A model generated the notes under the pieces. The model was not told the DNA's origin. It saw nothing but the letters and a program-made list of their open reading frames with translations, and searched no databases. A program made the translations under genes and the position numbers. Source: Corylus avellana (Eukaryota; Streptophyta; Magnoliopsida; Fagales; Betulaceae). Taken from it: 64,000 nucleotides of DNA. Shown in pieces: positions 1,483-22,500 of the stretch (within the stretch, counting starts at the first letter, position 1; each line of letters starts with the position of its first letter). The DNA is taken from the NCBI RefSeq assembly GCF_901000735.1, contig NC_081547.1, positions 4,092,001 to 4,156,000 of the forward strand. Direction: 5' to 3'.

Positions 1483-3798
1483 TTATATGAAGTAAAACAT
1501 GATGTTACCCATTGCTCCAACAAGGAAATTTAATTGGAGATGAGCAATCGAATCATCAGAATGGAGTATCCAGACCCTGTTTGATAGAAGTGACGCATTC
1601 ATCAAAGGTTTGATGTGCTTGATCTTAAAGCTCAATTGAACAGGACGATCCCCAGCAGAACCCCCAATTATACATTCTGAAAGCTGTAGACAGACAACAC
1701 CAAGGGCAAAGTAAGTGTTTGATACAAGTATCCTCTTCTATCAATCACAGCATGCAAAGATCATCATATATACAGAGGGATAATTAGACCTTCGTGAAGA
1801 AAATGTACCATATATAGTATATAGTATTAACAGATTCTTGAACTTCACTTGTTTATCAGTTAAGAATCAAAAGTGAAAGCAAAAACTGGTAGGGAAGGAG
1901 GAATTTGATTCATGGTGCTCGGCATACCTCTTTCTTAAGGACAATTTCCGCATTCATTGCAGAGAACTTCACTTGTTTATCCGTTATAGCTATAAAAACT
2001 GAGGCGACAAGAATGTGTTAGTCAAATGAAACATGCAAATCTTAATATCTAAAAGCGGGACAAAATGAACTTTTGCAAGCAACAAGAAGCCTCTGAGATG
2101 TCTAACATGATTTAAGAATTGTCTTTTAAGAGTTAGATCATTCACTCACGGTACAGTAAGCTACAAGCCAATGAAATATTAGTTGTGAGTCGCAAGGTGA
2201 ATTATATCCATCTTTAGGGATGTTCTGTAGTATATAACTAATTCTTATCATGTATCAAGAAATACTGTTCTGATTTCAAGCGTCCCCCATGAGTTAAATG
2301 CAATCTTAATTTGTGTATATAAGTTTTTTGACATTTTTTTCGATGTAAGCCGACTTTTAAAGGTACTTTCTCTATCCAAAATTTGTATCATTTGATATCA
2401 TAGCCAACCAACCATGTCTTTATAACCACTCACTCTATGTAGGCTACTTATTTTTCTTAGACATGACCAGAATGTTAATTTGTAATAACTTAAGAAAAAC
2501 GCTAGCCACATATGCGCTATTACCTTAAAAAAACTAGCTAATTTAAAACTTCATAAAATCACTTATAGAGCCTAATTTCATCTAATAAGTAAATAGTGTG
2601 AAACTTAGCACTCATAAGCATTTCTTATAAACCACTCATAATTTTTTATGAGGGCAATGAGACTTGTTTCCAAAACACCAAGAGTGTGCAAGAGACTTAT
2701 GAGGAAGGGTAAATGAGAACCTCAAAGAAACAGAACATAAAAATGGTGAACAAAACAACATTTGCTTCTGAATTTCTGCCATTTATAATTGTTTATAAGA
2801 GTAATACTAACATCGGTAGATGAAAAACCACTTAAAATACACAACGTTACTGGTGTGAAATGAGTTTGAAGAGTAGCATTACTCGTCTATAAAAAATCTC
2901 CCGGTATAGTTAAAATACACAATTAAACTGCTTTACCCAATTCTTTTAACATCCCCAAAAAAAAAGAGAAAAATTAAACTGGATCATCCAACTGAAATTT
3001 GAATGGAAAATGCCAAAAAGAGGAGTACCTTGGTGCCCAAAGAAAGACAGATGCTTGAGAATACACCTAAACTCCTCTGAAGGTATCGCAGCAACCATAT
3101 TGTATTCTGTTTTTGACTCATCCGGTAGAACTTCATCGGGGTCCATTTCAATCAATTCAAGTTCACGGTAGCGCTCTTTGAGAGTTCCTGATCCAATTCA
3201 CAATTAGACAAGTTTAAGCCAATGAGAATTAACCCAGAGCTAGCAATTGTTCAAATGATCAATCTGTCATGTCCAAGATCGAAAGAAAATTCAAGAAATA
3301 ACAAGAAACAATCACAAAAGATTTTGCTCAAGAAATCTACACGAGCTGGGTGAAAAAGTTCCAAGAAATGTTTTCTAAGTGCCAAATGCCAAGAAATAAA
3401 TTGAGTGAGAGGTACTTACTGCGATTCTTAAACACAAATTGGAGCACGGGGCCCCCAATCTCATTATTAATGGTGGCCGAACCGTAGTTCTCGTCATCCA
3501 CGATGGACAGGCCATAATTAATGGTGGCCGTGCAGTACTCCTCGTCATCCACAATGGACAGGTTCTGGTACAAGTCATGGAGGTTGACCCAACTGATCCC
3601 TTCGGTATCGCAGAAAAAGGGCTTGAATCCTAATGATCGGAATTTCAGAACCCCCATGATGCTGTCAGTTTTCAGGGCTATCAGCTCTATCCCTTCCGAT
3701 GAGCACTTGATAATGGCTTTCCCATCAATCTCAGTGAGCGGCGCCAAGGCCTTCCGAAGAGACAGAATCAAACCTTGGTTTGCCGTGATCTCTAGCAT
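1483..3798 (-). CDS. PCNA-like sliding clamp, copy A
   Basis: Divergent homologue of proliferating cell nuclear antigen, the trimeric ring that holds polymerases on DNA. Exons (minus): 3798-3420, 3187-3029, 1998-1928, 1683-1483; 269 codons before the stop, against about 264 for plant PCNA. An acceptor 9 bases further in (exon 3 starting at 1989) would also stay in frame, giving 266. Family matches: MLE start; CSSEGIELIAL and LKFRSLGF in the first domain; a TEYN..IPSEEFRCILKHLS block like the second-domain start of PCNA; ITDKQVKFSA in exon 3; a NIMFY end. Odd features: residues 80-96 are repeated as 97-113; D replaces the K164 equivalent; the protein stops before the usual APKIE tail. Intron 2 is about 1 kb. 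I infer a working frame; whether it forms rings is unknown. Confidence 0.82.
3460..3561 (-). repeat. 51-bp internal coding duplication in copy A
   Basis: Two head-to-tail 51-bp units (3561-3511 and 3510-3460) encode LSIVDDEEYCTATINYG followed by LSIVDDENYGSATINNE. In PCNA this place corresponds to the strand region around residues 78-95, near the subunit interface. The same duplication is in copy B but not in C or D. Confidence 0.85.
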
Positions 3799-3818
3799 CG
3801 TGGAGAGAGAGAAACGGG

Positions 3819-3830
3819 TTGGCGGGAAAG
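3819..3830 (-). promoter_or_regulatory. E2F-type site, copy A
   Basis: Gene-strand sequence CTTTCCCGCCAA matches the E2F/DP consensus. It lies 20 bases upstream of the ATG. A conserved block, GGTTAACCCG, follows at 3867-3876. Known PCNA promoters are E2F targets, so this fits S-phase expression (inference). Confidence 0.75.
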
Positions 3831-3899
3831 CTATGGAGCTCTCGGGATTTCAATTGATTAAAAGTTGGTTAACCCGACGGTTATTAACTGGTTTTTGGT

Positions 3900-4770
3900 T
3901 TATTACACTCTAGAAAAAGTTAATAGCTCGTCTGCCCATATATATATATATATACCACGCTAAAAGCCTAAAACGACATCATTTGACCAACTGTGTCACT
4001 CCAGATTTTAACTCCATAAGATAAAGAAATTTTGGTTTTTGAAAATAAGAGAAATCTATGATATTTTATGGTTAGAAACTTAGAATGTTAGTTTTCGGAA
4101 AATATTATTTTAAAGCTTTTAACTTTTAATATCAAGGATCTTTGGTTGAATTATGGTATTATTTTTTTTAAAAAAAAATGGATCAAATAACTTATTTTAG
4201 GCTTAAAAGTGTTAAGGGATTTTTGTTGGACTACGGAAAAAAATTTGGAAGCTAATTTTAGATTGTAGATGAGATAATAAATAAATATGTGGTAATAAGT
4301 ATAGAAAGAAAAAAAATAAAAAAAATGCATAACAAAATGAAATAAGAAAGAGGGGAGCGGGGTGCATCTCGGTTGAGTGACCTCAAATTCGATGGGTTTC
4401 TAGATAGTTGCTCAAGCGGGCTTATGGAAACTTTCCCACCAAATGTGCACAAACACACACGCATAGAGAGGAGGAGGGCTTCTGCTGGCCACTACACAAT
4501 TGTTTTCAACTTCTCGGTTCCATCCATGGCGATTGCGTACGGTTGTCATCCTAAGAGGGGCAGGGAGATGTAACAACTAGAGAAAAAGTGCTAGGCTTAT
4601 ATGCGATATCATTCCAAAATGACTAATCAATTTGAAATTTTCTAACAATTTTTTATAAAGCTCAAATTTACCCAGTAACTAGGCAATTTGGGACTTATGA
4701 TCTATTTGGATGTGCGTTTGAGGTCTTAAAAGTGCGTTTAACACTCAAAAAGTTCGTTTAAAGAAAAAAA
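3900..4770. repeat. Spacer between copies A and B
   Basis: Array spacer without a convincing gene. It includes a (TA)n stretch at about 3938-3953 and a block at about 4340-4573 that recurs at 8930-9178 and 12100-12344. Short frames exist on both strands of that block but they are not conserved between copies. Confidence 0.6.
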
Positions 4771-6106
4771 AAAACGTATTTGGTAAAAAAATTGGAAGTG
4801 CTTTTAAAGGTCCAAAAAGCCTAAAAATGGTCAAAATACACTTTTGGCAAAAACTTATAATTAGAGCATTTTTTTACTTAAAAATCTCTACTTTTCATAC
4901 ACAATTCGATACATGCTCTTAACACTCATATCTATCTTTATTAACCACAAACTTTATGTGATGGAGATACTCCTCATTTCCCAATATAGGACGGGAGTAT
5001 TACAGAGGAGGGATGGAATATCTCCTCCGCAATGACCTTGACGAGGCCATTGGTGCCAATATCTCCTAATGTCTCAAATAATGCTACAAATTACAATTTT
5101 ATCTTACTACTGTCAAACCCTAAGTGGTATTGCTTGAGTTTCTTAATGAATATTCTTATAAGCATTAACAACCAACGAAACCAATCTTAGTTGCTTTAAT
5201 AGAGTAATGTTAGAAATCACTCTTATGTCCCTTTTGTGTCACTCCAAAAATGATGTGGCTTCTAAAATCATCATTGAGCTTATGATTGATCATTATTGAA
5301 TTTTGATCAAACTGTAATTTTAAAAGCTACCTCATTACTGGAGTGACACAAGAAGGACTTATAAAATTACTCACACTAATACCAATGTTGACCGGTTGTA
5401 GGCTACTAAACCAAAACACACATATTCCACATTCTAATTAGTCTCAAATTTTTCACACATTTTTGTGTTATGCACAAGCCCCAGCCTTATTCAAATGTTA
5501 TTCCATTGTTACAATGTGTAGTGAAATGCAGTGAGATATAAGAAGGAACATCGTTTCAAGCGGAGAAAGATTATTACAAATTTCATGTCATGCATAGCAT
5601 CAGCTCCTCCTCCTCAAATGATGTAAAACATGATAATTGATGAAAGAAATAAAAAAACTATTTAGTGAAATATATTCGACCAATTTAGAGAAACCATCGA
5701 TCTATTATGCCCTCCCCCTTGGTGCTTAGGCTCGAGTAAGCCTCAATCCAAGCTTAAAGCCTCTTTGATTCTTATAAAAGTTGAACTATCACTTGCACCC
5801 TAAGTCATGTGAGTTTTTTTTTTTTTTTTAATGGGAAAATACATATTATTCATTTTAAAATTTGGTTTGTAACTAAAACTTTTGCCATTATCAAATTTCA
5901 AGTCTAAAATCAACATCTCTAGCTAATAACTATTCTTGTAACCCTTTCCCCATTTTATTTATTAAAAAAAAAATCCATTATATTATGTTACATCACGAAT
6001 TAAATTTCAAGTATTTTGTATAGCATTACTCGCTCCAAGCAATATTATTCAGATATAGTGAGAGATAAGAAGAAACATTGTTTTTTGTTGTTCTATAAAA
6101 TGATGA
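4771..6106. repeat. Spacer downstream of copy B
   Basis: Homologous to 1-1482, with small gaps. No gene is seen. It holds a single copy of the 95-bp segment that is doubled in the first unit. Confidence 0.7.
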
Positions 6107-8411
6107 TTATATGAAGTAAAACATGATGTTACCCAGTGCTCCAACAGGAAAATTTAATTGGAGAAGCGTAAACGACTCATCAGAATGGAGTATCCAGACT
6201 CTGTTTGATAGAAGTGACGCATTTATTAAGGGTCTAATGTGCTCCATCTCAAAGCTCAATTGAACAGTAAGATCCTCAGCATAACCCCCAATTATGCATT
6301 CTGAAAGCTGTAGACAGACAACACCAAGGGCAAGGTAAGTGTTTGATACAAGTATCCTCTTCTATCAATCACAGCATGCAAAGATCATCATATATACAGA
6401 GGGATAATTAGACCTTCGTGAAGAAAATGTGCCATATATAGTATTAACAGATTCTTGAACGTCACTTGTTTATCAGTGAAGAATCAAAAGTGAAAGCAAA
6501 AACTGGCAGGGAAGTGAGGGTGGGGAAGGAGGAATTTGATTAATGGTTTTCGGCATACCTCTTTCTTAAGGACAATTTCCGCATTCAATGCAGAGAACGT
6601 CACTTGTTTATCCGTTATAGCTATAAAAACTGAGGCGACAAGAATGTGTTAGTCAAATGAAACATGCAAATCTTAATATCTAAAAGCGGGACAAAATGAA
6701 CTTTTGCAAGCAACAAGAAGCCTCTGAGATGTCTAACATGATTTAAGAATTGTCTTTTAAGAGTTAGATCATTCACTCACGGTACAGTAAGCTACAAGCC
6801 AATGAAATATTAGTTCTGAGTAGCAAGGTGAATTATATCCATCTTTAGGGATGTTCTGTAGTATATAACTAATTCTTATCATGTATCAAGAAATACTGTT
6901 CTGATTTCAAGCATCCCCATGAGTTAAATGCAATCTTAATTTGTGTATATAAGTTTTTTGACACTTTTTCGATGTAAGCCGACTTTTAAAGGTACTTTTT
7001 CTACTCAAAATTTGTATCATTTGATATCATAGCCAATAAGCCATATCTTTATAACCACACACTCTAGGTGCGCTATTCATCTTTCCTATACATGACTAGA
7101 ATGTTAATTTGTAATGACTTAAGAAAAACGCTAGTTACATTTATGCTATTACCTTAAAAAGACTAGCTAATTTAAAACTTCCATAGAATCACTTATAGAG
7201 CCCAATTTCATCTAATAAGTAAATAATGTGAAACTTAGCACCCATAAGCATTTCTTATAAACCACCTTTTTTTTTTTTTGTGCAGGCTATGAGACTTGTT
7301 TCCGAAACACCAAGTGTGTGCAAGAGACTTATGAGGAAGTGTAAATGAGAACTTCAAAGAAACATAACATAAAAGTGGAGAACAAAACAACAGTTGCTTC
7401 TAAATTTCTGTCATTTATGACTGTTTATGAGAGTAATACTAATATCAGTAGTTGAAAAGCCACTTAAAATACACAACGTTACGGGTGTGAAATGGATTTG
7501 AAGAGTAGCATTACTCGTCTATAAAGAATCTCTCAGTATAGTTAAAATACACAATTAAACTGCTTTACCCAATTCTTTTAACATCCCCAAAAAAAAAAAG
7601 AGAAAAATTAAACTGGATCATCCAACTGAAATTTGAATGGAAAATGCCAAAAAGATGAGTACCTTGGGGCCCAAAGAAAGACAGATGCTTGAGAATGCAC
7701 CTAAACTCCTCTGAAGGTATCGCAGCAACCAGATTGTATTCTGTTTTTGACTCATCCGGTACAATTTCATCAGGGTCCATTTCAGTCAATTCAATTCGAC
7801 AGAAGAGCTTATTGAGAGTTCCTGATCCAATTCACAATTAGACAAGTTTAAGCCAATGAGAATTAACCCAGAGCTAGCAATTGTTCAAATGATCAATCTG
7901 TCATGTCCAAGATCGAAGCGGCCTTCAAAGAAAATTCAAGAAATAACAAGAAACAACCACAAAAGATTTTGCTCAAGAAATCTACACGAGCTGGGAGAAA
8001 AATTTCCAAGAAATTGAGTGAGAGGTACTTACTGCAATTCTTAAACACAAATTGGAGCTCGGGGTCCCCAATCTCATAATTAATGGTGGCCGAGCCGTAC
8101 TCCTCGTCATCCACGTTGGACAGGCCATAATTTGTGGTGGCCGTGCAGTACTCCTCGTCATCCACGATGGACAGGGTCTGGTACAAGTCATAGAGGTTGA
8201 CCCAACTGATCCATTCGGTATCGCAGACGAAGCGCTGGAAGTCTAATGATCGGAATTTCAGAACCCCCATGATGCTGTCAGTTTTCAGTGCCATCAGCTC
8301 TATCCCTTCCGATGAGCACTTGATAATGGCTTTCACAGAAATGTCAGTGAGCGGCGCCAAGGCCTTCCGAAGAGACAGAATCAAACCTTGGTTTGCCGTG
8401 ATCTCTAGCAT
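6107..8411 (-). CDS. PCNA-like sliding clamp, copy B
   Basis: Nearest paralogue of copy A. Exons (minus): 8411-8033, 7821-7663, 6629-6559, 6307-6107; exon lengths 379, 159, 71 and 201 are the same as in copy A, giving 269 codons. Splice junctions are in the same places and phases. It keeps the 17-residue duplication (second unit LSNVDDEEYGSATINYE), the IPSEEFRCILKHLSFFG block and the NIMFYFI end. At the K164 position it has D, and the later conserved lysine of VKF is T (QVTFSA). Intron 2 is about 1 kb, as in A. The intact frame despite many substitutions suggests selection, but this was not measured. Confidence 0.82.
8073..8174 (-). repeat. 51-bp internal coding duplication in copy B
   Basis: Units at 8174-8124 and 8123-8073, at the same residues (80-96 and 97-113) as in copy A. 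The duplication therefore came before the A/B split. Confidence 0.85.
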
Positions 8412-8431
8412 CGTGGAGAGAGAGAAACGGG

Positions 8432-8443
8432 TTGGCGGGAAAG
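8432..8443 (-). promoter_or_regulatory. E2F-type site, copy B
   Basis: Same CTTTCCCGCCAA motif, 20 bases upstream of the ATG, followed by the GGTTAACCCGG block at 8480-8490. Confidence 0.75.
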
Positions 8444-8529
8444 CTATGGAGCTCTCGAGATTTCAATTGATTAAAAGTTGGTTAACCCGGCGGTTATTAA
8501 CTGGTTTTTGCTTTATTACACTCTAGAAA

Positions 8530-10077
8530 AAAGTTAATAGCTCGTCTGCCCATATCCATATATATATATATATATATACCACGCTAAAACAACATCATTT
8601 GACAAACTGTGTCACTCCAGATTTTAACTCCATAACATCAAGAAATTTTGGATTTTGAAAATAAGAGAAATCTATGATATTTTATGGTTAGAATGTTAAT
8701 TTTCAGAAAATATTATTTTAAAGCTTTTAACTTCTAATATCAAGGATCTTTGGTTGAATTATGGCATTATTTATTTATTTTTTTATTTTTTTAAAAAATT
8801 GATCAAATAATTTATTTTAGGCTTAAAAGTGTTAAGGGATTTTGTTTGGACTACGTAAAAAAATTTGTAAGCTAATTTTAGATTGTAGATGAGATAATAA
8901 ATAAATATGTGGTAAAAAAAAAAAGCATAACAAAATGAAATAAGAAAGAGGGGAGCGGAGTACATCTTGGTTGAGTGACCTAAAATTCGATGGGTTTCTC
9001 GACAGTGTTCAAGCGGGCCTATGGAAACTTTCCCACCAAATGTGCACACACACTGACACACACATAGAAAGGAATGGAGGGCCGCTGCTGACCATCACAC
9101 AATTGTCTTCAACTTCTCGGTTCCGTCCATGGCGATTGTGTATGGTTGTCATCCTAAGAGGGGGAGGGAGATGTAACGCCTCAAGAAAAGGCGCTAGACT
9201 TATATGCGCTATAATTCTAAAATGACTAATCAATTTGAACATTTCTTAGAATTTTTTATAAAGTTCAGTTTGAGACTGAGCTTTATAGGCAATTTGGGGC
9301 TTAGGGTCTGTTTGAGTTTACGTTTAAAGGCTTAAAAATGCGTTTAACACTCAAAAAGTTTGTTTGAATAAAAAAACATTTTTTTACTTAAAAGCTTTAT
9401 TTTTCAAACACAATCCAAAAGATGCTCTTTAAGACTTTAACACTCATAACTATCTTTATAAATAGCAAACTATATGTGATTAAGATGCTCCTCATTTCAC
9501 ACATATGGGATCAGAGTGTTACAGAGGCTCCGCAATGACCTGACGAGGCCATTGGTGCTAATATCTCCTAATGTCTAAGTAATATTATAAATTACACTTT
9601 TACCTTACTACTAACCAATCATAAGTGGTATTGCTTGTGTTTTTTAATGAATATTCTTATAAGCATTAACAACCAACAAAATCAATCTTAGTTGCTTTAA
9701 TAGAGTAATACTAAAAGTCACTTTTATGTTCCATTTGTGTCACTCTACAAATAATATGGCTTCTAAAATCACCATTGAGCTTATGATTGATCGTTATTAA
9801 ATTTTGATCAAGTTGTAATTTTAAAAGCCACCTCATTACTAGAGTAACATAAGAAGGACTTATAGAATTACTTGCTCTAATACCAATGTTGACCGGTTGT
9901 AAGCTACTAAACCAGAACACACATTTTTTGTGTTCTACACAAGCCGCAGCCTTTTTCAAATGTTGAAAACGTTACTTACTCCATTGTTACAATGAAATAC
10001 AGTGAGATATAAGAAGGAACATAATTTCATGTCATGCATGATGCATAGCATCATCTCCTCCTCCTCAAATGATGATA
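8530..10077. repeat. Spacer between copies B and C
   Basis: Array spacer. It has a (TA)n run near 8550-8577, the recurring block at 8930-9178, and a shortened version of the downstream-flank sequence from about 9300. No gene is seen. Confidence 0.6.
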
Positions 10078-11352
10078 TCATGGGATGTAAAACATTAAGT
10101 TACCAGCTGCTCCGACAGGGATATTAAATTGGTGAAGTGCCATCAGATCATCACAATGGAGTATCCAGACCGTGTTTGATAGATATGACGCAAGCATGAA
10201 GGGTCCGGCGTAATCGGTGTCCATGATCACCTGAACTGGATAATCCTCAACAGAAGTTGCCCCAATTATACACTCCGAAAACTGCTGACAACACCAAGTG
10301 CAAAGTAATTCGTTAAAGTGAAAGCAAGAAACAGAGAATTTGATCAATGGGTGCTCGGCCTTACCTCTTTCCGAAGGGTAACCCGTACATGCAATACCGA
10401 GAACACCACTTGTGTTTCTGTTATAGTTATAGTAACTGCAGCCACAACCATGTGTTAGTCAAATCAAACATGCAAAATTATGAAAGAAACAGAGTCTAAA
10501 ACAGAGGATCAAAATGAAGAACTAAACTTTTTCTGCCATGTATAAAGATTCCCTCACCACTGAAAAACTAAACTGCATACCCAATTATTTGAATGGAAAA
10601 TGCCAAAAAGATGAGTACCTTCGTCCCCAACATCAAACAGAAGCCTGAGAATGTATCTAAACTCCCATGAAGGTACGGCAGCAAACACACAGTATTCTCT
10701 TTGTGACTCATTCCTGTATCCTTCTTCAGCGGCAGGATCATCAGGTAATTGCAAACCAATTCCATGTGGATGATAGGTGTCAATTACTGATTCAATTCAC
10801 AATTAGACAATTATTACTCAAGAAAAACATACGTTTCAGTGGAAATTGAGCATACAAGATGTACAGAAGCTGGCAGAAAAAAAAAAAGTTCAAGAAATGT
10901 TTTTCTAAGTGCATAGTTTTTACAAGAGATCCGATTTCCTAGATTATTAAGTGCCAAGAAAGAGAATTTAGAAAGGAAAAACCGCAAGAAATTGAGTGAG
11001 AGATACGTCTTGAATTTATGAAGGTAATTTCGGTCCTCTGTTCGCAGTCTGGGGCTTGAAAGCAGATGAATTCCTCCCCCAAGTGGTCATATAAAGGATT
11101 TTGTGCAAGCATGCTCAGGATCTCGAATAAGCAATTGAGATCGACACCAGTGACCGCTTCGAAGTCGGAGGCAAAGTGTATGAAGTCTAGTGATCGGAAA
11201 CTCAGAACCGCAAAGAAATCGTAGTCGTCAGTGATCCGTGCTATCAGCTTTATCCATTCCAATGAGGCCACGACAGTGCCGTTATCAGCAATCCAAGTGA
11301 GCGGCTCCACGGCCCTCCGAAGCAAAACTTGGTCTACCACGAACTCTAGCAT
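10078..11352 (-). CDS. PCNA-like sliding clamp, copy C
   Basis: Exons (minus): 11352-11007, 10786-10619, 10435-10365, 10281-10078 (346, 168, 71, 204 bases); 262 codons, close to plant PCNA length. There is no internal duplication. Matches to the family include FFAVLSFRSLDFIHF, VPSWEFRYILRLL, and VTITITETQVVFS, which lines up with the VVIS..KEGVKFS strand of PCNA. E replaces the K164 equivalent, and the protein ends NLMFYIP without a PKIE tail. The exon 1 donor used by the other copies has lost its T; a GTATCT donor four bases further on restores the same phase. Introns are short (83-220 bases). The segment equivalent to the interdomain connector is longer and unlike PCNA. Confidence 0.78.
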
Positions 11353-11386
11353 GGTGGAGAGAGAGAGAGAGAGAGAGAGAAAAGGG

Positions 11387-11398
11387 TTGGCGGGAAAG
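11387..11398 (-). promoter_or_regulatory. E2F-type site, copy C
   Basis: Same motif as in A and B, 34 bases upstream of the ATG. The greater distance comes from a (GA)n run at about 11355-11381. A GTTAACCTGG block sits at 11447-11456. Confidence 0.75.
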
Positions 11399-11671
11399 CT
11401 ATGGAGCTCAACGGGATTTCAGTTTCAATATTATGTTAAAAAGTCAGTTAACCTGGGGGTTTACGGATTGGGTTTCTGTTATGGTTTTTGGTTTATCATT
11501 ATAATTTGTGCTGTTAATATCTAAAAAGGAAAAAAATTAAAATTATTCCTTGGAATTTTTTTTTAAAAATGATTTCAGTTTATTTATCACAAATTTAATA
11601 ATAATTTTAAAAGTCATATCAATTTTGAGGACATGTTTATTGAGGATTCAATGATAATGATTGGAATTGCA

Positions 11672-11836
11672 CAACCGATCCCTTCGGTATTGCAGACGAA
11701 TTGCTGGAAGTCTAATGATCGGAATTGCAGAACCCCCATGAGAATGCTGTCGGTGTTCAGGAGGCTATCAACTCTATCCCTTTCGATGAGTAGTTGAAAG
11801 AGGCTTCCTCAGCAATCTCAATGAGCGGCGCTGAGA
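11672..11836 (-). pseudogene. Relic of a fifth PCNA-like exon 1
   Basis: About 165 bases align with the middle of exon 1 of copies A and B (the segment encoding the RSLDF..DTE region and the CSSEGIEL region), with small indels. The first 20 or so codons including the ATG are deleted, yet the E2F motif and the GTTAACC block upstream remain (11849-11860 and about 11889-11900). No exons 2-4 accompany it. It is a broken A/B-type copy between C and D. Confidence 0.8.
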
Positions 11837-11848
11837 AAGAGAAACGGG

Positions 11849-11860
11849 TTGGCGGGAAAG
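11849..11860 (-). promoter_or_regulatory. Orphan E2F-type site of the relic copy
   Basis: Same motif as the four intact copies, now next to a coding relic without a start codon. Confidence 0.65.
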
Positions 11861-11929
11861 CTCTCGAGATTTCAATTGATTAAAAGTTGGTTAACCCGGT
11901 GGTTATTAACTGGTTTTTGGTTTATTACA

Positions 11930-13241
11930 GTTTGAAAAAAAAAAAAAAAAAAAAAAAAGGGATCAAATAACTTATTTTAGGCTTAAAAGTGTTAAGGGAT
12001 TTTGTTTGGACTACGGAAAAAAAATATGAAAGCTAATTTTAGATTGTAGATGAGATAATAAATAAATATGTGGTAATAAGGATAGAATAAAATAAAATGC
12101 ATAACAAAATGAAATAAGAAAGAGGGGAGCGGAGGGACATCTTGGTTGAGTGACCTCAAAATCAATGGGTTTTCTCGGCAGTTGCTCAAGCGGGCCTATG
12201 GGAACTTTCCCACCGAATGTGCACGCACACACATAGAGAGGAATGGAGGGCCGCTGCTGGCCACCACACAATGGTCTTCAATTTCTTGGTGCCGTCCATG
12301 GTGATTGTGTACTGGTGTCATCCTAAGAGAGGGAGGGAGATGTAACGACTCAAGAAAAAACGCTAGATTTATATGTGTTATTATTCCAAAAAGACTAATC
12401 AATTTGAAACTTTCTTAAAATTTTTTATAAAGCTCAGATTTACCCAGTAACTAGGCAATTTGAGACTTAGTGCCTATTTGGGTATGCATTTGAGGGCTTA
12501 AAAATGCGTTCAACACTTAAAAAGTTCATTTGAAAAAAAAAAAAGAAAAAAAAGTAAATGTTTGGTAAAAAAAATTGAAAGCACTTTTAAGGGTCCAAAA
12601 AACATAAAAATGGTCAAAACACATTTTTGGCAAAAACTTTAAAATGAAGCTTTTGCCAAAAAAAAAAAAAAAAAAAACGATTTTTTAACTTAAAAACTCT
12701 ATTTCTCAAACACAATTCAAAAAAATGCTCTTAACACTCATAACTATCTTTATAAACCACAAACTCTATGTGATTGAGATGCTCAAAATTTCTTAATATG
12801 GAACTAGAGCGTTACAGAGGAGGGGGTAATATCTCCTCCGCAATGACCTTGACGAGGCCATTGGTGCCAATATTTCCTAATGTCTCAAGTAATATTATAA
12901 ATTACACTTTTTATCTTACTACTAACCAATCATAAGTGGTATTGCACTTGTTTTTTTTAATGAATATTTTTATAATTAAGCATTAACAACCAACGAAATC
13001 AATCTAATACCAATAATGTTGAGGGGTTGTTGGCTACTAAAGCAAAAACACACACATTCCACATTCTAATTATTAGTCTCAAATTTGTCACACATTTCTG
13101 TGTTGTGCACAAGGCCTAGCCTTTTTAAAATGTTGAAATGCAGTGAGATATAAGAAGGAACATTGTTTTGAGCTGAGAAGATTAAAAACTTCATGTCATG
13201 CATTAGCATCAGCTCCTCCTCCTCAAATGATGATATTATCA
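11930..13241. repeat. Spacer between the relic and copy D
   Basis: Begins with a poly(A) run at about 11936-11958, then repeats the array spacer: the recurring block at 12100-12344 and the downstream-flank sequence from about 12480. No gene is seen. Confidence 0.6.
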
Positions 13242-14479
13242 TCATGGGGTGTAAAACATGAATTTACCAGTTGCTCCGAGAGGGATAATAAACTTGTGAA
13301 GCGCTATCGGATCAGCACAATGGAGTATCCAGACCATGTTTGATAGATATGACGCGTGCATGAAGGGTCTGGCGAAGTCTGTGTCTATGATCACCTGAGC
13401 TGGATAATCCTCAGCAGAAGTTGCCCCAATTATACACTCCAAACGCTGCTGACAACACCAAGTGCAAATTAGTAATCGTTAAAGTGAAAACAAGAAACAG
13501 AGAGTTTGATCAATGGGTGCTCGGCCTTACCTCTTTCCGAAGGGTAACCCGTATACGCAATACAGAGAACACCACTTTTGTTTGTGTTATAGTTATAGTA
13601 ACTGCAGTCAAATCAAACATGCAAAATTATGAAAGAAACAGAGGATAAAGAATCCTTCCCTTCCCTTCCCTGCCCTTCCCTTCCCCCACTACTGAAAAAC
13701 TAAATAAATTTGAATGGAAAATGCCAAAAATATGAGTACCGTTGTCCCCAAGATCAAACAGAAGCCTGTTAATGAATCTAAAAACCGTTGAAGGTACGGC
13801 AGCAACCACACAGTATTCTCTTTGTGACTCACGCAAGTATCTTTCTACAGCGGCATGATCAGGTGGATGCAAATCAATTTGTTGTGTAGGATAGACGTGA
13901 GGTCCTGATTCAATTCACAATTAATTAGACAATTATGACTCAAGAAAAACATACGTTTCAGTGGAAATTGAGCTTACAAGATGTACAGAAGCTGGCCGGC
14001 AGAAAAAAGTTGCAAGAAATGTTTTCTAAGTGCATATATAGTTTTTACAAAGAGCTAGACCTGATTTCATTGATGATTAAATGCCAAGAAAGAGAATTTA
14101 GAAAGAAATTGAGTGAGAGATACGTACTGTTATTTATGAAGGTAAGTCGGGCCGTTCGTTGGTAGTCTAGGGCATTAAACCATATGAATCCCTGCCCCTC
14201 CTGTTCATATAAAGCATCTCCTACTATCATGCCCAGGATCGCCATTAAGCACTCGAGATTGACACCAGTGACACTTCCGAAGGTGCAGTAAAAGTGTATG
14301 AAGTCTAGTGATGAGAGACTCAGAACCGCAAAGAAATCGTAGACGTAGTAGTCTTCAGGCCACCGGGCTATCAGCTTTACCCCTTCCTTTGAGGCCATGA
14401 CAGTGCCTTGTGTAGTAATCAAAGTGAGCGTCCGCACGGCCATTTGAAGCATAGTTTGGTCTACCACGAACGATAGCAT
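13242..14479 (-). CDS. PCNA-like sliding clamp, copy D
   Basis: Nearest paralogue of copy C. Exons (minus): 14479-14128, 13904-13740, 13601-13531, 13445-13242 (352, 165, 71, 204 bases); 263 codons. The exon 1 donor is GTACGT at the canonical place. Family blocks: FFAVLSLSSLDFIHF, VPSTVFRFINRLLFDLG, VTITITQTKVVFS, and a KFMFYTP end. Q is at the K164 position. The basic pair near residue 14 of PCNA (RK in A, RR in C) is absent here (MLQMAV), so the DNA-facing surface may be altered. Introns are short (85-223 bases). The frame is intact throughout. Confidence 0.78.
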
Positions 14480-14526: not shown

Positions 14527-14531
14527 AAGGG

Positions 14532-14543
14532 TTGGCGGGAAAG
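14532..14543 (-). promoter_or_regulatory. E2F-type site, copy D
   Basis: Same motif, 52 bases upstream of the ATG. A GTTAACCCGG block sits at 14589-14598. Confidence 0.75.
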
Positions 14544-14633
14544 CTATGGAGCTCAACGGGATTTCAGTTTCAATATGTTATAAAGTCAGTTAACCCGGGG
14601 GTTTATAGATTGGGTTTCTGTTATGGTTTTTGG

Positions 14634-15160
14634 GGTTAAATACTTTTTTGTCCAACGCCGTTTAAACAACTTTATTTTTTTGTTACTTCGGTTTTATTTT
14701 GTGTCACAGATAGTATCTCAATAATGGCAAAAAATGGTACCTTCGTCCCCAAGAAGTAGCTCAATCGGCTAGGACCACACTTTATGAAGTGGAGGTCACG
14801 AGTTCGAATCTCCATTCCCCCCTCTTGTGCGGACATGTCCAAAAAAAAAAAAAAATGGTACCTTCACGTAAATTTCGTCCAAAATTTGATGGAAAGCCAC
14901 GTCAGCACCATTAAAAAATCGACATGTGTTCATATATTAATTAAAAATACAAAATTAAAATTTTAAAATTAAAAATATTATTAAAAAATAAATAAATAAA
15001 AACAAGGGAAAGGGGTGGCTCGAGCCACTCCCAGGGGGCCCCTAGGGGTGGTTTGGCCACCCCCGTTTGGCCTAGGGTGGTTTAAGGCACCCCCAAGGGC
15101 TAACCCTAATTATTATTATTATTTTTTCAATTGGCCGTTGGGGGTAGCCGAACCACCTTT
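14634..15160. mobile_element. Insertion upstream of copy D, with a GC-rich core
   Basis: Sequence upstream of copies C and D is collinear up to 14633 and again from 15161, so about 527 bases were inserted in D. The insert carries a nested SINE (14745-14851) and a GGGGTGG/CCACCCC-rich core at 15016-15165. No reading frame for a transposase is seen. The class of the element is not clear. Confidence 0.65.
14745..14851 (+). mobile_element. tRNA-derived SINE, copy 1
   Basis: A box TAGCTCAATCGG at 14757-14768 and B box AGTTCGAATCTC at 14801-14812 form an RNA polymerase III internal promoter; a poly(A) tail follows. It is flanked by a direct repeat ending AATGGTACCTTC (about 14731-14744 and 14852-14865), a target-site duplication. 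No acceptor-stem pairing, so it is not a tRNA gene. Confidence 0.8.
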
Positions 15161-16100: not shown

Positions 16101-17942
16101 CTAAGATTGCTCCTTTGTGTTGTCCTCGGCTTCCGGCTTTGGCTCCGGCTCTGCAGGTTCTGGCGGTGTCGAGGCACTCTTCTTGTTTGCAGCGGCAGCC
16201 TGGAGGACGTGGTGGTAGTTTCCTTTCTCCATGAAGAGCTGAGCAAAATGGTGCTTGCAGTAGAGGACTCCATCAAGAGCAGCATAGGAACAATGTGTAA
16301 GAGTGCACCCACCATGAGCACACCTGAAGCATGATTTGTGGTAACATTCTCCTTCCATAGTCATCTGCAAAGGTAAAGCAAAAAAGCTACATGGTTAACT
16401 CTATTCAACGTGTCAAATAACTGTTTGTCTTAAAAGATTGACGTGACAGAAAAAGATAGACTTATTCATTTAAATTAATATTCTAACAAAATGGGTTTAC
16501 ATTGACGGAGATATATAAGGTTCCCGTATTGGGCTAATATGATATTAAATAAGAGATCATGACTTCGAACGTGCGTTGTCTCCATCATTTATCTTCCATT
16601 TCAATTAAATATTTTACATGTTAACCATCACTTATTAAGGGGAAGTTTGAGCCCACGTACGAAAGAAATGATTAATTTCTTCCATTTATATCAACTTAAA
16701 ATTTTGAGACAAACGATGATTTAATACAAGAAAACATTACTAACACATTTCATTCATGGCCTTGTTTTCTTCAGCTTTTGGCACAAATTAAAGAGCTTGT
16801 TCACCATTGATTAAGATCACCAACCTTCTCCAGAGGATACACAGTTTTCGAGCAAGTGGTGCATTTGTCTAGGGTTCCACTGAACATGGAAGAGAGTTTG
16901 CTTGGAGCTCGAGCCTATAAAAAGATATCAAATTTCGATTGTTATTCTTAATGAAAAAAATAAAAATAAACAAATAGAAAAATGATCAATTTGTATATAG
17001 ATTTGGATGTCCCATGAGATTTTTTTAGCATTTAAAGGCATCATCCCCCAGAAAGGAAAACAAAAGATCAGCCTTTAGAGTCACAGGACATCCAAAAACG
17101 CTAAGTTCATAGAAGGATGAATATACCAGATCGCCATGCCTCTCAGAAGACTTTGCTGCATAATATTACAGCTTACCGTTAGCCACCCAGATACAAAATT
17201 CATTTATAATTTTTGTAAAAGTATCATAATATAATGGCCTGAAAGAAAAAAAAAAATCTTACGTGCATGAAAATTCTTGCTGAAATTGCCAGATTCCTTG
17301 AAAAGTTGCTCGAAATGAGGTTTGCAGTACAGGACTCCATCCATGGAGGAGTAGCTGCTCATCTGCAAATTATAGGCTGATTAGCACCTCTGATATGGAG
17401 AATTAATTTTTGAGACGAGTGATGATTTATATTGATATTAGAGCCGATTTTGAAATACCCATTTTAGTTAAATATTTGACCTATTATATCTCACTTGTTG
17501 AGATGAATTTGAGCCCATGCGTGTAAGAAGAGTGTTAAGGTTTAAATGATTAACCTTAAAACTCAATTGCATGGCTATTAGTTTTGATCTACCTCATAAA
17601 ACATGCATAATTACATACATAAATTATATTATTTATCACTATGTCAATTGCATTGGAATTGCACCTTCATCCCCTAATAATATAAAGATCAATATATTAA
17701 TTAAGAAAATTAAAAGAAGCTAAAGAAAAAAAAATATGGTTCAAAAAAAAAAGAAAAATAAAAGACATTATTGAAATATATATTGAGAGTTGATAAAAGA
17801 TAAATACCGAAAGAAATCCTTTGCAATGGCTGCATTTGAAGCAGGATTTATGATAAGGTAGCCCTTCAAGAGACATCATATCAACCACATAGACAGTTTT
17901 ATCACAAGCCTTGCATTTATCCAGAGTTCCTGTGAATGCCAT
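16101..17942 (-). CDS. PLIM2: Two-LIM-domain actin-bundling protein, PLIM2-like
   Basis: Plant CRP-like protein that binds and bundles actin filaments. Exons (minus): 17942-17808, 17362-17263, 17155-17127, 16914-16825, 16364-16101; 205 residues. LIM1 has zinc ligands C10, C13, H31, C34, C37, C40, C58 and H61; LIM2 begins C106, C109 and continues H127, C130, C133, C138. The domains are joined by a short linker that includes a 29-base micro-exon. The tail is acidic and proline-rich (PEPAEPEPKPE), which fits the pollen-type PLIM2 branch better than WLIM; that subgroup call is from memory of the family. All junctions keep frame. A (GAA)n run lies just upstream of the ATG on the gene strand. Confidence 0.92.
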
Positions 17943-19596
17943 TATCTTCTTCTTCTTCTTCTTCTTTTCTTTGTTTTTATGTTTTTGTTTTGTTTAAGGC
18001 TCTTGAAGATGAAGATGTATTATTTTTTGCTGTGGCTCAAGTTGTCTGAGGATCAAAGGGAAGCTCCTAAGAAGGCACCGAGGTTTTTACATGTACCTCA
18101 GACAAATAGGATTGAGCAAAGTCTTTGATTTGTGTGGGCAAAACCAATTTATATCAGATTAAGACGGATCTTTTCATGCTAGTAAATGGTGGACAAGTGA
18201 TTGGAGATCCCAATATTACGATGGAAAGATGGAAAACTAATGGTGTAATTGTAGATAATCCGAATGGATTGGAGTAAAAGAAGGCTGGTGCTCTGACCTT
18301 TTCAACAGTGGACATTTTTGGGATGAAAAATTAAAGCCAACTGGTTTTTGCTATTTGATGTCTTGGTAGTTATGTAGGTTAATTTTTTTTATTTATTTTT
18401 TTTTGGGGGGTGTTTGTGGTCCTAACTTTGATAGGAGATCAATAAAATTGGTGCTGATCAGGTGTGCTAAAGGCCCAATAGAATCTTTGAAGCTGGCTAA
18501 ATGTGGCTCATATATATTCTCTGCTACCACTCTAATCCTTGCTTTAATGGAGAATGTGGAGACAAGTTCTTCCAAATATGGTTTTTCTCAGTAGATTAAT
18601 GAAGGGTGTGGAGAGCTTGTTACCTGTACATAATCAAGAGTGCCACTGAGATAGTAGCATGTGGTTTTTCTCATTAACAAAAAGGTTTTTCCAACCAATT
18701 CCCCTAATAAAAATGATCATGCCACCCCTCAAGACTCTAGGGCCACCCACACACTTAAGAATTGAGAGGGGCCTTGAAGCTAAAGGCCTTTGTAGGTGGT
18801 CGGCTACCCCCTCAAGGCTTCTCAAAGATGGTTGTACTACCTCAAAAACTCTTAAGGGGGCGACCAACCACTTCCAATAGCCTTGAGCATTGGCTAACCA
18901 CCCTCCCAAAAGTCTTGAGGTGATGGTCAACTGCTCTTTTGGGGTGACCGACCATCCCACAAATTTTGAAGGGGGGTCCGGCCACCCTTTTTAGGTGATT
19001 GGCCAAATGAGTTTTTTTAGTTATTTTTTTAAACTCAAAATAAATGACATGACAAAAGCGTAATGGTTCATTTAATGTCCTAAGAAAAGATATCCTAAAT
19101 TCCTAATTGGTACAAGGACCTTTGTACAATTTTATACATGATAAAATAAAGTTATTTCACATATTGAAAGCCTGCACAAAAGAAATAAAAAAGAAGACAA
19201 GTACATTAATTGAAAGAAAATTAAGATTTTATTTATTTTATTCTAAGTACCTCTTCAGTTATCTTGCAGATAAGTTACTGAATTAGTCTAAAAAACCATA
19301 GTGTAAGAACATCCCACCTTTTTTTTTCTTCTGCTTTCTAAAAATTTGCTGCATAATTATTCATACTTTTATAAGAGGACAAAAATTAGAAGAGTTACTG
19401 AGACAAGTACGCACACATTCAAATGGTAGCTCCAAAGTTTCATCACACTTATTTGCAAGACAAAGTCTACCATTATAGATTGTATTTGTATATAACATAC
19501 TGACAATAAATAGGGGAAGGAAGCCAGGAAGGTAATACTGCAGATCAGGTGCACACCATAAGAGAAAACTGTGCTACATTTCCTTGAACCAGAGAA
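17943..19596. other. Intergenic region with a GC-rich repeat
   Basis: Contains the presumed LIM promoter (about 17943-18350). A degenerate GGTGG/CCACC-rich repeat lies at about 18719-19012. No gene is supported; short frames at 18390-18600 have no recognisable content. Confidence 0.5.
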
Positions 19597-22500
19597 TTAG
19601 GGAAGCAATATGACTCGCTGACACAATATGAGATCTGAGATGGTCTTACCATGCCTGTCAATTCTCCGAGAGCAGTTGACACCACCATCTAGAATGTTTC
19701 GCACCACAACATTCAAAGACTGTATTCCCTTAACTTCATATATTTCCACCTTGACATGTTCATCCACACATTTGTCCTTATCATTGCTATCTGAGTTGGG
19801 GAATGAAGAGGTACTTAGAAGAGTCGAGACCACTTCTTTTACCCATTGGGGTGTTATGATCAACTTGAGCCTCTCAATATCTGGAGCGAAATGTGGGATG
19901 ATGGAGAAGTTCAAGTCATTTCCTTTGTCACCAGCCCTGCTATGTGCTACATCATAGAGTGGAATCTTCTGGCCATATGGAGCAGGAGAGGGATCGATAT
20001 GGGGAGATGATAAATCGGTGCAGAAGTTATTGGCATCGGTGGGTGTCGTTGGTGGCAATTCCGATTCATGCAAAACACAGGTTTTTGTCGGATCTTCAGA
20101 GCCAATTCCTTGGTTATTGGATTCTACTACTGGGGTCTGTTTCACTCCAGTTCGCCATAGAACATGTTCGCGGTCAACCTGAAAGGCCAAACATTTAACC
20201 GAGAATTTCTTCATGTCAGAAAGTCTGAAGAATATTTTTGACCAATTGCTGAAAATAACTGACAAGCCAATCTGCTTAAAGTGAAGATTATCAAATGTTT
20301 TGGTTCGACCGAAATTGAAGGTTAACATAACAGGACTATGCAAAGAAATAATAAGGACCAAAAAACTAATTATTACTTCGCAAAAGGGCCATGAGATTAT
20401 AGCTTAATAATGAGTGAAGTTTCATGTTCTTCAAATGGGTGATTGGTTGGACCAATACTTTTTCCAGGCACTGATCCCAACTGTGGATAAAAGTAAAAGT
20501 AAGAGAGAGAGAGAGAGAGTACCAGTTGTTTCTCAAGAACAATCTCTTTCTTGTGCCCTGTGCTGCATTCAGTAAGAAAAGCAGAACAATCATGTACATG
20601 ATTGAATCTATCATTATTACGGGTAGCGAGGGCTCACAGTTTCTTAATTGACAAGCCCTAAACGTGAAAATGGTTGCACAAGTAGATAAGAAACTGACCT
20701 GATGCCACCACTACCGGCTGGTCCATTTGTATATAAAGCTGTAAACTCTCTAGCAAATTGGATAGCATGTTCCTTCAACTCAAATAAACCATCCATACGT
20801 AACCTAATATCTTCACCAGTTTCCCACCATGAAGCATTGTCATCAATGCTAGTTGCCTTCAGGCTATCAAGTCCAATTATATAAGAAAGTATACGGCAGC
20901 TAACACCAGGATAGACTTCATCCATCCATGACCTAACCTAACAAAATATGAAAGAAATATTACTTCTTAATAAAGGTATAAGCTAAACAAGTTTGATGTA
21001 CCAAGTAGTCCTCTTCAAACAGCAGAATCACTATAATGAGTGCAATTCTGAGAAGCCAGATTCAATTCAGTTCACACACTTAAAAATAGTAGCCAATATT
21101 ATTAGAATATGTCAATGTAGTAAGTTTATCTACCAGAAATTCAGCAGCTTTAGCACGTTTAACGCATCCAGATCCTCCATAGGATATCTCTCCCCATCCT
21201 TTCCATCCAGAGTCCTGAAAACTAAAAACGTTACAAAACTAGAGAAGACAGAAACAACTTACAAACAAAGGAAATAGGCATCACTCAAGTACACAGTATC
21301 ATTTAAGCCAGACAAGCTGTACATAAGCACCAGATCTTCCAAGTTGAACTTGGAAACTAAAAGCATGACAATCTTAAATATAGATCCTAACTTCTTCATT
21401 TATAACCAAAACCAAAATGAAACAATGCATACAAGAGTTACCTTTGGAACCAACTGCAGGAGTGTAATAGGCACTGATGCAGCAGCTGGCTTTACCCCAG
21501 CACAGAGTACCTTAGAGCTTGATAATGGGTGGAATGAAACATCCAGAACATCAATGATCTGTGTTCAGACGGACAAAATTTCACATTTCTTTCCATTTTT
21601 TCCCATTTATATATGCAATTATAAAATTGATTGTGTACACACATCTAACTTACCACATCAGGGGTGATATAAGCACCAGGATCACCAACCTCATAAAGAA
21701 GTTGTTCAGCACATGTACTGACATTTAATACCCCACCACTACCTTCTGCCTTTGCTACACACACATTTCCATTAAAACTGACTTCAGCATAAGGAAGTGA
21801 CAGATCTAAGAGCTGAGGGAAAGATATGTCACGATACTTGTCCCCTGCAACGGTAAAAATGAACAAAAAAATAAAAAAACATTACAACAATCAGATAAAA
21901 TTCACATATGAAAAAACTTATACCTTTATTACACATCAAGCTAAAAGAAAATGTCACCTGGATGCATGAAAAATCCCCCTGTGAGTTGACAGCCACACTC
22001 TAGAAGGTGGCCAGCCAGAGACCCCTGTGCTAACTGCTTTACGTCGTTCCAATTCCAACCTAGTTCATAAACCTAATTAAAAACCAGTGCAATCATTCAA
22101 CTCACTATCTGAAAGGAAATCAGAAAACAGCAAAGTTGACAAGATGAGAGGACTCAATTTATCCATAGTGTTAAAGAAACTTATAGACACATTAAATTAA
22201 GTAAATAAGTGCTACTCAACCAATTAAGTATAAAAGAAATACAGTAATCTGGTTCATTAAAAACAAATTTCATTTAATAATGTAGACAATCCAGTAACCA
22301 TTTTATTAATTTATTCAAGAAGAAGGTAAAGAAGAAGAATTGAACTGATAGGAAAAAATCAAATTTCATACCATTGGTGCTAAGAATAGGGCAGCATCTG
22401 CAACTCTTGATGTAATTATCACATTCGGCTGGTACTTTTCCAAACATTCCACTATAGGAGCTGCTCCCAGATATGTGCTAATACCCTACATAGATTAGAC

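What the first reader, a model, noticed from the sequence alone, without database searches (positions are those of the whole stretch)
1483..14479. Tandem array of four intact, divergent PCNA-like clamp genes
Plants usually have one or two strongly conserved PCNA genes. Here four neighbouring copies differ greatly from PCNA and form two subtypes (A/B and C/D), yet each keeps four exons, matching intron phases, every splice junction, and an open frame of 262-269 codons. Decayed genes would rarely keep all of this. They may be specialised clamps, possibly mixing as hetero-trimers with each other or with PCNA (speculation).
Basis: partly seen in the sequence, partly recalled or inferred. Interest (0 to 1): 0.88.

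Follow-up and report, generated by a model that had tools for sequence, protein, structure and literature searches.

The report
Fast-evolving PCNA-derived gene array in hazel
Hazel carries neighbouring copies of a gene derived from the nearly unchanging DNA-replication clamp PCNA; they keep an open reading frame and a cell-cycle switch sequence, but have lost most of the clamp's working surfaces, and two of them seem to change their protein faster than chance predicts, which suggests a new job.

Summary
Confirmed: four spliced PCNA-like genes (A-D, minus strand, 1483-14479), open frames of 269/269/262/263 codons, intron phases 1-1-0, GT-AG ends. One correction: C lacks the first donor used by A, B and D and needs a weak in-phase GT 4 nt downstream. 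The window is Corylus avellana or very close (B equals LOC132186571 minus 18 aa); one relative is from Carpinus. A decayed fifth copy lies at 11668-11831 (34).

New: these do not look like working clamps. Of 13 basic DNA-facing or nearby positions A-D keep 5, 3, 3, 1 (59); most PIP-pocket positions, the C-terminal tail and K164 are lost. Frames stay open while C/D amino acids change faster than synonymous sites: omega 3.8 (2.1-7.8); all four 2.1; M2a/M1a 2dlnL 57.8 (null simulations at most 11.8 and 5.5, 57). A/B alone is neutral-like (1.2). All copies keep TTTCCCGCC, a plant E2F site, in a 26-bp block identical in A-D.

Best reading: a PCNA-derived family with a cell-cycle promoter element under diversifying selection, probably acting by protein binding (PCNA capping or decoy). 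Expression untested; no protein equal to A, C or D was returned.

The parts
1483..3798 (-). Copy A, 4 exons: 3798-3420, 3187-3029, 1998-1928, 1683-1483 (stop included); 269 aa; subtype AB
   Evidence: splicing; Pfam PCNA_N 31.0 and PCNA_C 45.6 bits
6107..8411 (-). Copy B, 4 exons: 8411-8033, 7821-7663, 6629-6559, 6307-6107; 269 aa; subtype AB; the same protein as C. avellana LOC132186571 apart from 18 extra aa in that model
10078..11352 (-). Copy C, 4 exons: 11352-11007, 10786-10619, 10435-10365, 10281-10078; 262 aa; subtype CD; displaced weak first donor (GAC|GTATCT)
13242..14479 (-). Copy D, 4 exons: 14479-14128, 13904-13740, 13601-13531, 13445-13242; 263 aa; subtype CD
11668..11831 (-). Copy E: decayed AB-type fragment of exon 1 (start codon and first ~16 codons missing, 2-nt insertion breaks the frame, no trace of exons 2-4 found beside it)
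3816..3841 (-). 26-bp block with E2F-type site TTTCCCGCC (3821-3829), site starting 31 nt before the ATG of A
8429..8454 (-). Same block at B (site 8434-8442, -31)
11384..11409 (-). Same block at C (site 11389-11397, -45)
14529..14554 (-). Same block at D (site 14534-14542, -63)
11851..11859 (-). TTTCCCGCC also kept in front of the decayed copy E
3462..3562 (-). 51-nt in-frame internal duplication (17 codons) in exon 1 of A; the insertion is absent from the Carpinus relative and from P0003
8075..8175 (-). The same 51-nt duplication in exon 1 of B

Best explanation
A-D belong to a gene family (named relatives seen only in Corylus and Carpinus, in searches of limited reach) that arose by DNA-level duplication of a PCNA gene, with introns and a cell-cycle promoter element kept. 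Shown here by sequence: frames are kept open and nearly free of indels, C/D replacements accumulate faster than synonymous and intron changes, and most positions that serve a sliding clamp are altered. Inferred: the proteins are made in dividing cells under E2F control, fold as PCNA-like monomers, and act by protein-protein contact rather than by sliding on DNA. The fastest-changing stretch corresponds to PCNA's last N-domain strand (one trimer edge) plus the interdomain connecting loop (the client-binding stretch). The most likely mechanism is therefore a PCNA-fold competitor or decoy: a subunit that caps or poisons PCNA rings, or that binds a fast-changing partner (a regulator or pathogen protein that targets PCNA).
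For: PCNA origin: Pfam PCNA_N/PCNA_C; best full-length PDB match of B is Arabidopsis PCNA1, 1.1e-11 (a yeast triple-fusion chain scores higher by adding three partial matches); intron 2 falls at the residue where PCNA models of Quercus (gap) and Triticum (insertion) look mis-spliced, and intron 3 near an insertion in a Brassica model. Maintained: A/B exons have 0 indels against 5-6 expected from introns and flanks (P 0.003-0.007); C/D exons have two in-frame indels plus the 1-nt change at C's donor against 14.7 expected (P 0.0003; 0.001 if a fourth gap that one search places in exon 4 is counted); neutral decay almost never keeps four frames; a Carpinus protein of 253 aa aligns over the whole length; a C/D-type exon 3-4 exists on another contig. 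Diversifying: C/D dN 0.251 vs dS 0.082, introns 12.9% different; omega 3.83, CI 2.12-7.77; all four 2.11, 2.28 after dropping codons near gaps; M2a vs M1a 2dlnL 57.8, above all null simulations (max 11.8 of 100 for M0; 5.5 of 40 for M2a); no GC-biased pattern (27 W>S vs 31 S>W on the C and D branches); 77 replacement to 7 synonymous polarised changes there, P 0.0004 against site numbers. Hot spot: 11 of 26 sites with posterior over 0.95 lie in A residues 126-148; within A/B, aligned without gaps, 11 of 25 residues there differ against 36 of 244 elsewhere, P 0.001; C/D P 0.019. Surfaces lost. Promoter: TTTCCCGCC occurs 5 times in 64 kb, each time in front of a copy (0.13 expected); 26 bp identical in A-D, chance about 2.5e-5 per position, about 0.01 over 400 starts.
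Against: No expression data. No protein equal to A, C or D was returned, so public annotation gives no support for three of the four; the C/D search scored only the 7997 candidates sharing most words. A/B alone does not reject neutrality, and its replacements do not exceed its flanks (8.1% vs 6.6%, P 0.23). For C/D the neutral yardstick varies: introns 5-21%, 72 aligned nt upstream without a change, downstream flank badly alignable; taken as aligned, the C/D flanks (31%) differ more than the replacement sites (21%; P 0.0004). Against introns the excess is 1.84-fold in odds (P 0.0005) instead of 3.3-fold. The hot-spot region was chosen after the site scan, and is not significant for B/D (P 0.18). 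The five E2F sites descend from one, and the looser consensus TTTSSCGC is not in excess (5 found, 2.5 expected). C has a weak first donor. C does not prefer plant PCNA among solved chains. An AF2 model from family members alone failed (pLDDT 34); the good model (best of five 82, others 59-74) is led by true PCNAs. No partner or interface was tested.
Confidence: 0.45

Rival explanations
1. Non-functional tandem duplicates: a PCNA duplicate escaped selection long ago, the array grows and decays by unequal crossing-over, and the open frames are survivors.
For: A/B omega about 1; a decayed copy E in the same array; C's lost donor; no public protein equal to A, C or D returned; most PCNA-invariant residues lost (42-56 of 184 kept).
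Against: All-open frames 0 of 4000 per root over the whole tree, 1-2% for tips alone; exon indels strongly reduced; omega well above 1 in C/D with null simulations far below; conserved promoter block; a Carpinus protein alignable over the whole length.
Confidence: 0.25
2. Specialised sliding clamp that encircles DNA, alone or mixed with PCNA in hetero-trimers.
For: PCNA domains in Pfam for A and B and in part for C; alignment-led model of the Carpinus relative has the clamp fold; hydrophobic residues kept at positions 114, 116, 180, 182 of the two edge strands.
Against: 1-5 of 13 basic DNA-facing or nearby positions kept, against 12-13 of 13 in ten plant PCNAs; net charge of the four inner helices -1 to +3 against +6; 2-3 of 17 PIP-pocket positions kept; 4-residue deletion beside the other edge strand.
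Confidence: 0.12
3. The excess of replacements is an artefact of a depressed synonymous rate in C/D (gene conversion tracts, codon constraint) or of multi-nucleotide mutations, on top of relaxed constraint.
For: C/D dS (0.082) is below intron divergence (12.9%), introns vary 5-21% and the flanks as aligned reach 31%; 34 of 260 C/D codons carry 2 or 3 differences.
Against: Replacements also exceed introns (P 0.0005) and introns plus synonymous sites (P 2e-6); the M0 test on all four sequences survives gap filtering (M2a was run on the unfiltered alignment only).
Confidence: 0.15

Closest known systems
Plant PCNA1/PCNA2 (replicative sliding clamp)
   Same: Pfam domains in A and B, length, intron 2 and probably intron 3 position, E2F-type promoter element, predicted fold of the Carpinus relative (TM 0.85 to solved PCNAs)
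   Different: 22-31% identity to Arabidopsis PCNA1, against 92% between Arabidopsis and Fagus PCNA; most of the basic channel and PIP pocket, the tail and K164 lost; tandem array; replacements at (A/B) or above (C/D) the synonymous rate
9-1-1 clamp subunits (Rad9, Rad1, Hus1)
   Same: Divergent members of the same clamp fold, with loss of PCNA hallmarks (recalled)
   Different: No Pfam match to their families for A-D at E 0.001; A-C match PCNA families instead
Archaeal hetero-trimeric PCNA1/2/3 (recalled)
   Same: Several divergent PCNA paralogues in one genome
   Different: Those remain working DNA clamps; here the DNA-facing charge is largely lost

Membership tests
PCNA (eukaryotic sliding clamp) | PCNA_N and PCNA_C sequence domains | tested here: inconclusive
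   A and B both domains; C only PCNA_C just above the cut-off; D none
PCNA (eukaryotic sliding clamp) | Two-domain clamp fold | tested here: inconclusive
   Carpinus relative modelled with 33 PCNAs in the alignment, best pLDDT 82, TM 0.85; family-only alignment gave pLDDT 34. Spliced A-D were not modelled
PCNA (eukaryotic sliding clamp) | Basic DNA-facing residues | tested here: not met
   5, 3, 3, 1 of 13 in A-D; 12-13 of 13 in ten plant PCNAs (position list recalled from human PCNA)
PCNA (eukaryotic sliding clamp) | PIP-box pocket (connecting loop, P234, C-terminal A252-I255 and neighbours) | tested here: not met
   2, 3, 2, 3 of 17 positions kept in A-D; Y133 and Y250 are kept in all four, I128, P129, P234 and residues 253-255 in none (position list recalled)
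PCNA (eukaryotic sliding clamp) | K164 modification site | tested here: not met
   D, D, E, Q in A-D by alignment
PCNA (eukaryotic sliding clamp) | Homotrimeric ring around DNA | not testable with these tools
   No multimer prediction available; edge strands partly keep hydrophobic spacing
PCNA (eukaryotic sliding clamp) | E2F-controlled expression in dividing tissue | tested here: inconclusive
   Site present before all copies; no expression data
9-1-1 clamp (Rad9/Rad1/Hus1) | Match to Rad9/Rad1/Hus1 families | tested here: not met
   no such family reported for A-D at E 0.001

The most novel reading that the evidence does not exclude
A tree lineage has turned its replication clamp into a diversifying, E2F-driven family of ring poisons or decoys: PCNA-fold proteins made in S phase whose client-binding face is in an arms race with a partner that targets PCNA, possibly a DNA virus replication protein or a genomic parasite.
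Probability: 0.15. Interest if true: 0.88.

Novelty: new variant of a known kind. Interest (0 to 1): 0.62.

Why it matters
PCNA is among the most conserved proteins of eukaryotes (92% identical between Arabidopsis and a Fagus model). A descendant family whose frame is maintained, whose promoter element is kept, and whose protein sequence changes at or above the synonymous rate would be a striking case of a housekeeping protein turned to a new, probably antagonistic role. It also gives a natural set of PCNA-fold variants for asking which surfaces matter for ring closure and client binding. It is cheap to test: hazel RNA reads and resequencing data would settle expression and constraint.

Tried and rejected
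Rejected: retrocopies (introns present in all four; positions shared with PCNA indirectly); GC-biased gene conversion as the cause of replacements; alignment error as the cause (omega 2.11, 2.16, 2.28 with increasing gap filtering); further PCNA-like copies elsewhere in the window (tblastn of 16 proteins at E 0.01 found only A-D and fragment E). Considered without support: a link to the hazel self-incompatibility locus. Passages of PMC8921776 place it on LG5 and list PIX7, MIK2 and other genes; the few neighbours that I named here are LIM, AtuA-like, DEAD-box and MYB genes (7 of the listed frames were scanned), so nothing ties the array to it.

Led nowhere: protein tree (root of the family unresolved, supports 46-48); family-only structure model; exon layout of Arabidopsis PCNA genes in print (PMC4550699, passages: exon counts only for cyclin genes in the passages shown). 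Literature on divergent or fast-evolving PCNA paralogues, or on PCNA in Corylus or Carpinus: in the listings I saw no title on this family (0 papers); those searches cover open-licence PMC papers only and list at most 20 each.
Full report
WHAT IS THERE. Each copy sits in a larger repeated unit: A and B about 4.6 kb apart, C and D about 3.2 kb apart. A and B match both PCNA families of Pfam, C only the C-terminal one, D neither. D is tied to C (63% identity) and both to A/B (35-40%). Identity to Arabidopsis PCNA1 is 22-31%. One decayed copy, E, lies between C and D; it keeps part of exon 1, has no start codon and is frame-broken. C lacks the GT that A, B and D use as first donor and depends on GTATCT 4 nt downstream.

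THE SPECIES. Protein search with A returned three proteins: P0001 (Corylus avellana LOC132186571), P0002 (Carpinus fangiana FH972_003957) and P0003 (another C. avellana protein, whose contig length equals that of P0001). P0001 equals B letter for letter once 18 residues, added by an upstream acceptor of exon 4, are left out. So the window is European hazel or an extremely close genome. No protein equal to A, C or D came back from the searches with A and with a C/D profile (where only the 7997 candidates sharing most words were scored); none of the 124 returned proteins holds a 30-residue stretch of A, C or D. The C/D search gave one hit, P0004, from an unnamed 6.8-kb contig; it appears to read through exon 3, intron 3 and exon 4 of a C/D-type copy. 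Absence from Betula, Alnus and other Fagales is not shown: the search needs shared 5-letter words.

ORIGIN. The copies come from a PCNA gene by DNA duplication. B's best full-length solved match is Arabidopsis PCNA1 (1.1e-11); C has no such plant preference. Intron 2 of the copies falls after the residue where a Quercus PCNA model has a gap and a Triticum model an insertion; a Brassica model has an insertion near intron 3. I read these as mis-spliced models, hence as indirect evidence for shared intron positions; I found no printed exon table.

THE PROMOTER. TTTCCCGCC occurs five times in the 64 kb, each time before the start of A, B, C, D or the fragment E; 0.13 are expected by shuffling. The five descend from one site, and the looser TTTSSCGC is not in excess (5 vs 2.5), so the telling point is conservation: in A-D the site starts 31, 31, 45 and 63 nt before the ATG inside a 26-bp block without a single difference, with a chance of about 2.5e-5 per position given the neutral tree length, about 0.01 over 400 starts. 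TTTCCCGCC is named as the conserved plant E2F element in passages of PMC8581614. [quoted passage not shown] Cell-cycle control is thus an inference from sequence.

SELECTION. A/B: dN 0.086, dS 0.083; exons 8.0% different, introns 5.1%, flanks 6.6%. C/D: dN 0.251, dS 0.082; exons 17.9%, introns 12.9%; flanks as aligned 31%, but 72 nt upstream without a change and a badly alignable downstream part. Own codon-model code gave omega 2.11 for all four (2dlnL 25.0 against 1), 1.21 (0.67-2.34) for A/B and 3.83 (2.12-7.77) for C/D; by branch class AB 1.19, CD 3.91, internal 1.83 (2dlnL 0.3, 24.7, 7.3 against 1). Site models favour a class with omega 4.7 (2dlnL 57.8). Simulations under omega 1 reached at most 11.8 in 100 runs for the first test and 5.5 in 40 for the second (one start per fit). 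Replacements against synonymous sites: A/B P 1.0, C/D P 6e-6; against introns: A/B P 0.012, C/D P 0.0005; against flanks: A/B P 0.23, and in C/D the flanks as aligned differ more than the replacement sites (P 0.0004). So the C/D case is strong within the exons, less so against noncoding yardsticks, and the A/B case is compatible with neutrality. Polarised changes on the C and D branches were 77 replacement to 7 synonymous (P 0.0004 against site numbers).

CONSTRAINT. At the same time the frames are guarded. A/B exons carry no indel where five to six are expected from the noncoding parts (P 0.003-0.007); C/D exons carry two in-frame indels plus the 1-nt change at C's donor where 14.7 are expected (P 0.0003; with a further 6-nt gap that the unit alignment places in exon 4, but the exon alignment does not, P 0.001). 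Neutral substitution alone would almost never leave four open frames (0 of 4000 per starting sequence; 1-2% if only tip branches were free). 32 positions are invariant in six family members (A-D, P0002, P0003) but differ from Arabidopsis PCNA1.

WHAT THE PROTEINS LACK. By alignment with ten plant PCNAs, A-D keep 5, 3, 3 and 1 of 13 basic DNA-facing or nearby positions and have net charge -1 to +3 on the four inner helices, against +6. Of 17 PIP-pocket positions they keep 2, 3, 2 and 3; Y133 and Y250 are kept in all four. K164 is D, D, E, Q, the residues after 252 are missing, and four residues are deleted beside an edge strand. The functional meaning of these positions is recalled from human PCNA; passages of PMC10548238 name K164 and K254 as sumoylation sites of tomato PCNA. 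A model of the Carpinus relative built with PCNAs in the alignment has the PCNA fold (best of five pLDDT 82, the others 59-74; pTM 0.78; TM 0.85 to solved PCNAs), but with three family members alone it failed (pLDDT 34), so the fold rests on homology.

WHERE IT CHANGES. Of 26 sites with posterior above 0.95, 11 fall in A residues 126-148, which align to the last N-domain strand and the connecting loop of PCNA. Within A/B, which align without gaps, 11 of 25 residues there differ against 36 of 244 elsewhere (P 0.001), with one synonymous difference; in C/D the excess is P 0.019, in A/C P 0.009, in B/D P 0.18. The region was drawn after the scan. In PCNA these parts carry one subunit edge and the client-binding loop (recalled).

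MECHANISM. The proteins are unlikely to slide on DNA; I infer protein binding. Ring capping or competition with PCNA for partners fits the fold, the inferred S-phase promoter and the hot spot. A pathogen-driven arms race is one possible cause: passages of PMC10548238 report that geminivirus Rep and REn bind plant PCNA and that PCNA down-regulates Rep. Nothing here shows such a virus in hazel. The main rival is a slowly decaying, unexpressed array: A/B neutrality, copy E, C's lost donor and the missing public proteins all speak for it.

VERDICT. Observation confirmed with corrections; interpretation partly supported; a new variant of a known kind (PCNA-derived, positively selected at least in C/D, clamp surfaces mostly lost), with function and expression open.

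Noticed in passing
1684-1737 and 6308-6361: Public hazel models of B and of P0003 carry 18 aa from an upstream acceptor of exon 4; the frame is open there in A as well, so the exon-3/4 junction of A/B is uncertain.
   Followed up: partly
P0004 (unnamed ENA contig): A C/D-type copy reads past the place of C's TGA stop (a Trp codon there, inferred from the protein) into what looks like the 3' flank.
   Followed up: partly
3462-3562 and 8075-8175: 51-nt in-frame tandem duplication in exon 1 of A and B; the insertion is absent from the Carpinus relative and P0003.
   Followed up: yes
14748-14822: tRNA-like stretch (box A and box B look-alikes by eye), perhaps a SINE; ARAGORN reports no tRNA in the window.
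   Followed up: no
1-1480: This stretch repeats the region 3' of B, so the window begins inside a further repeat unit and the array probably continues to the left; P0003 may lie there (inference).
   Followed up: no
16101-20403: Neighbours on the minus strand: a LIM-domain gene and an AtuA-like gene.
   Followed up: partly
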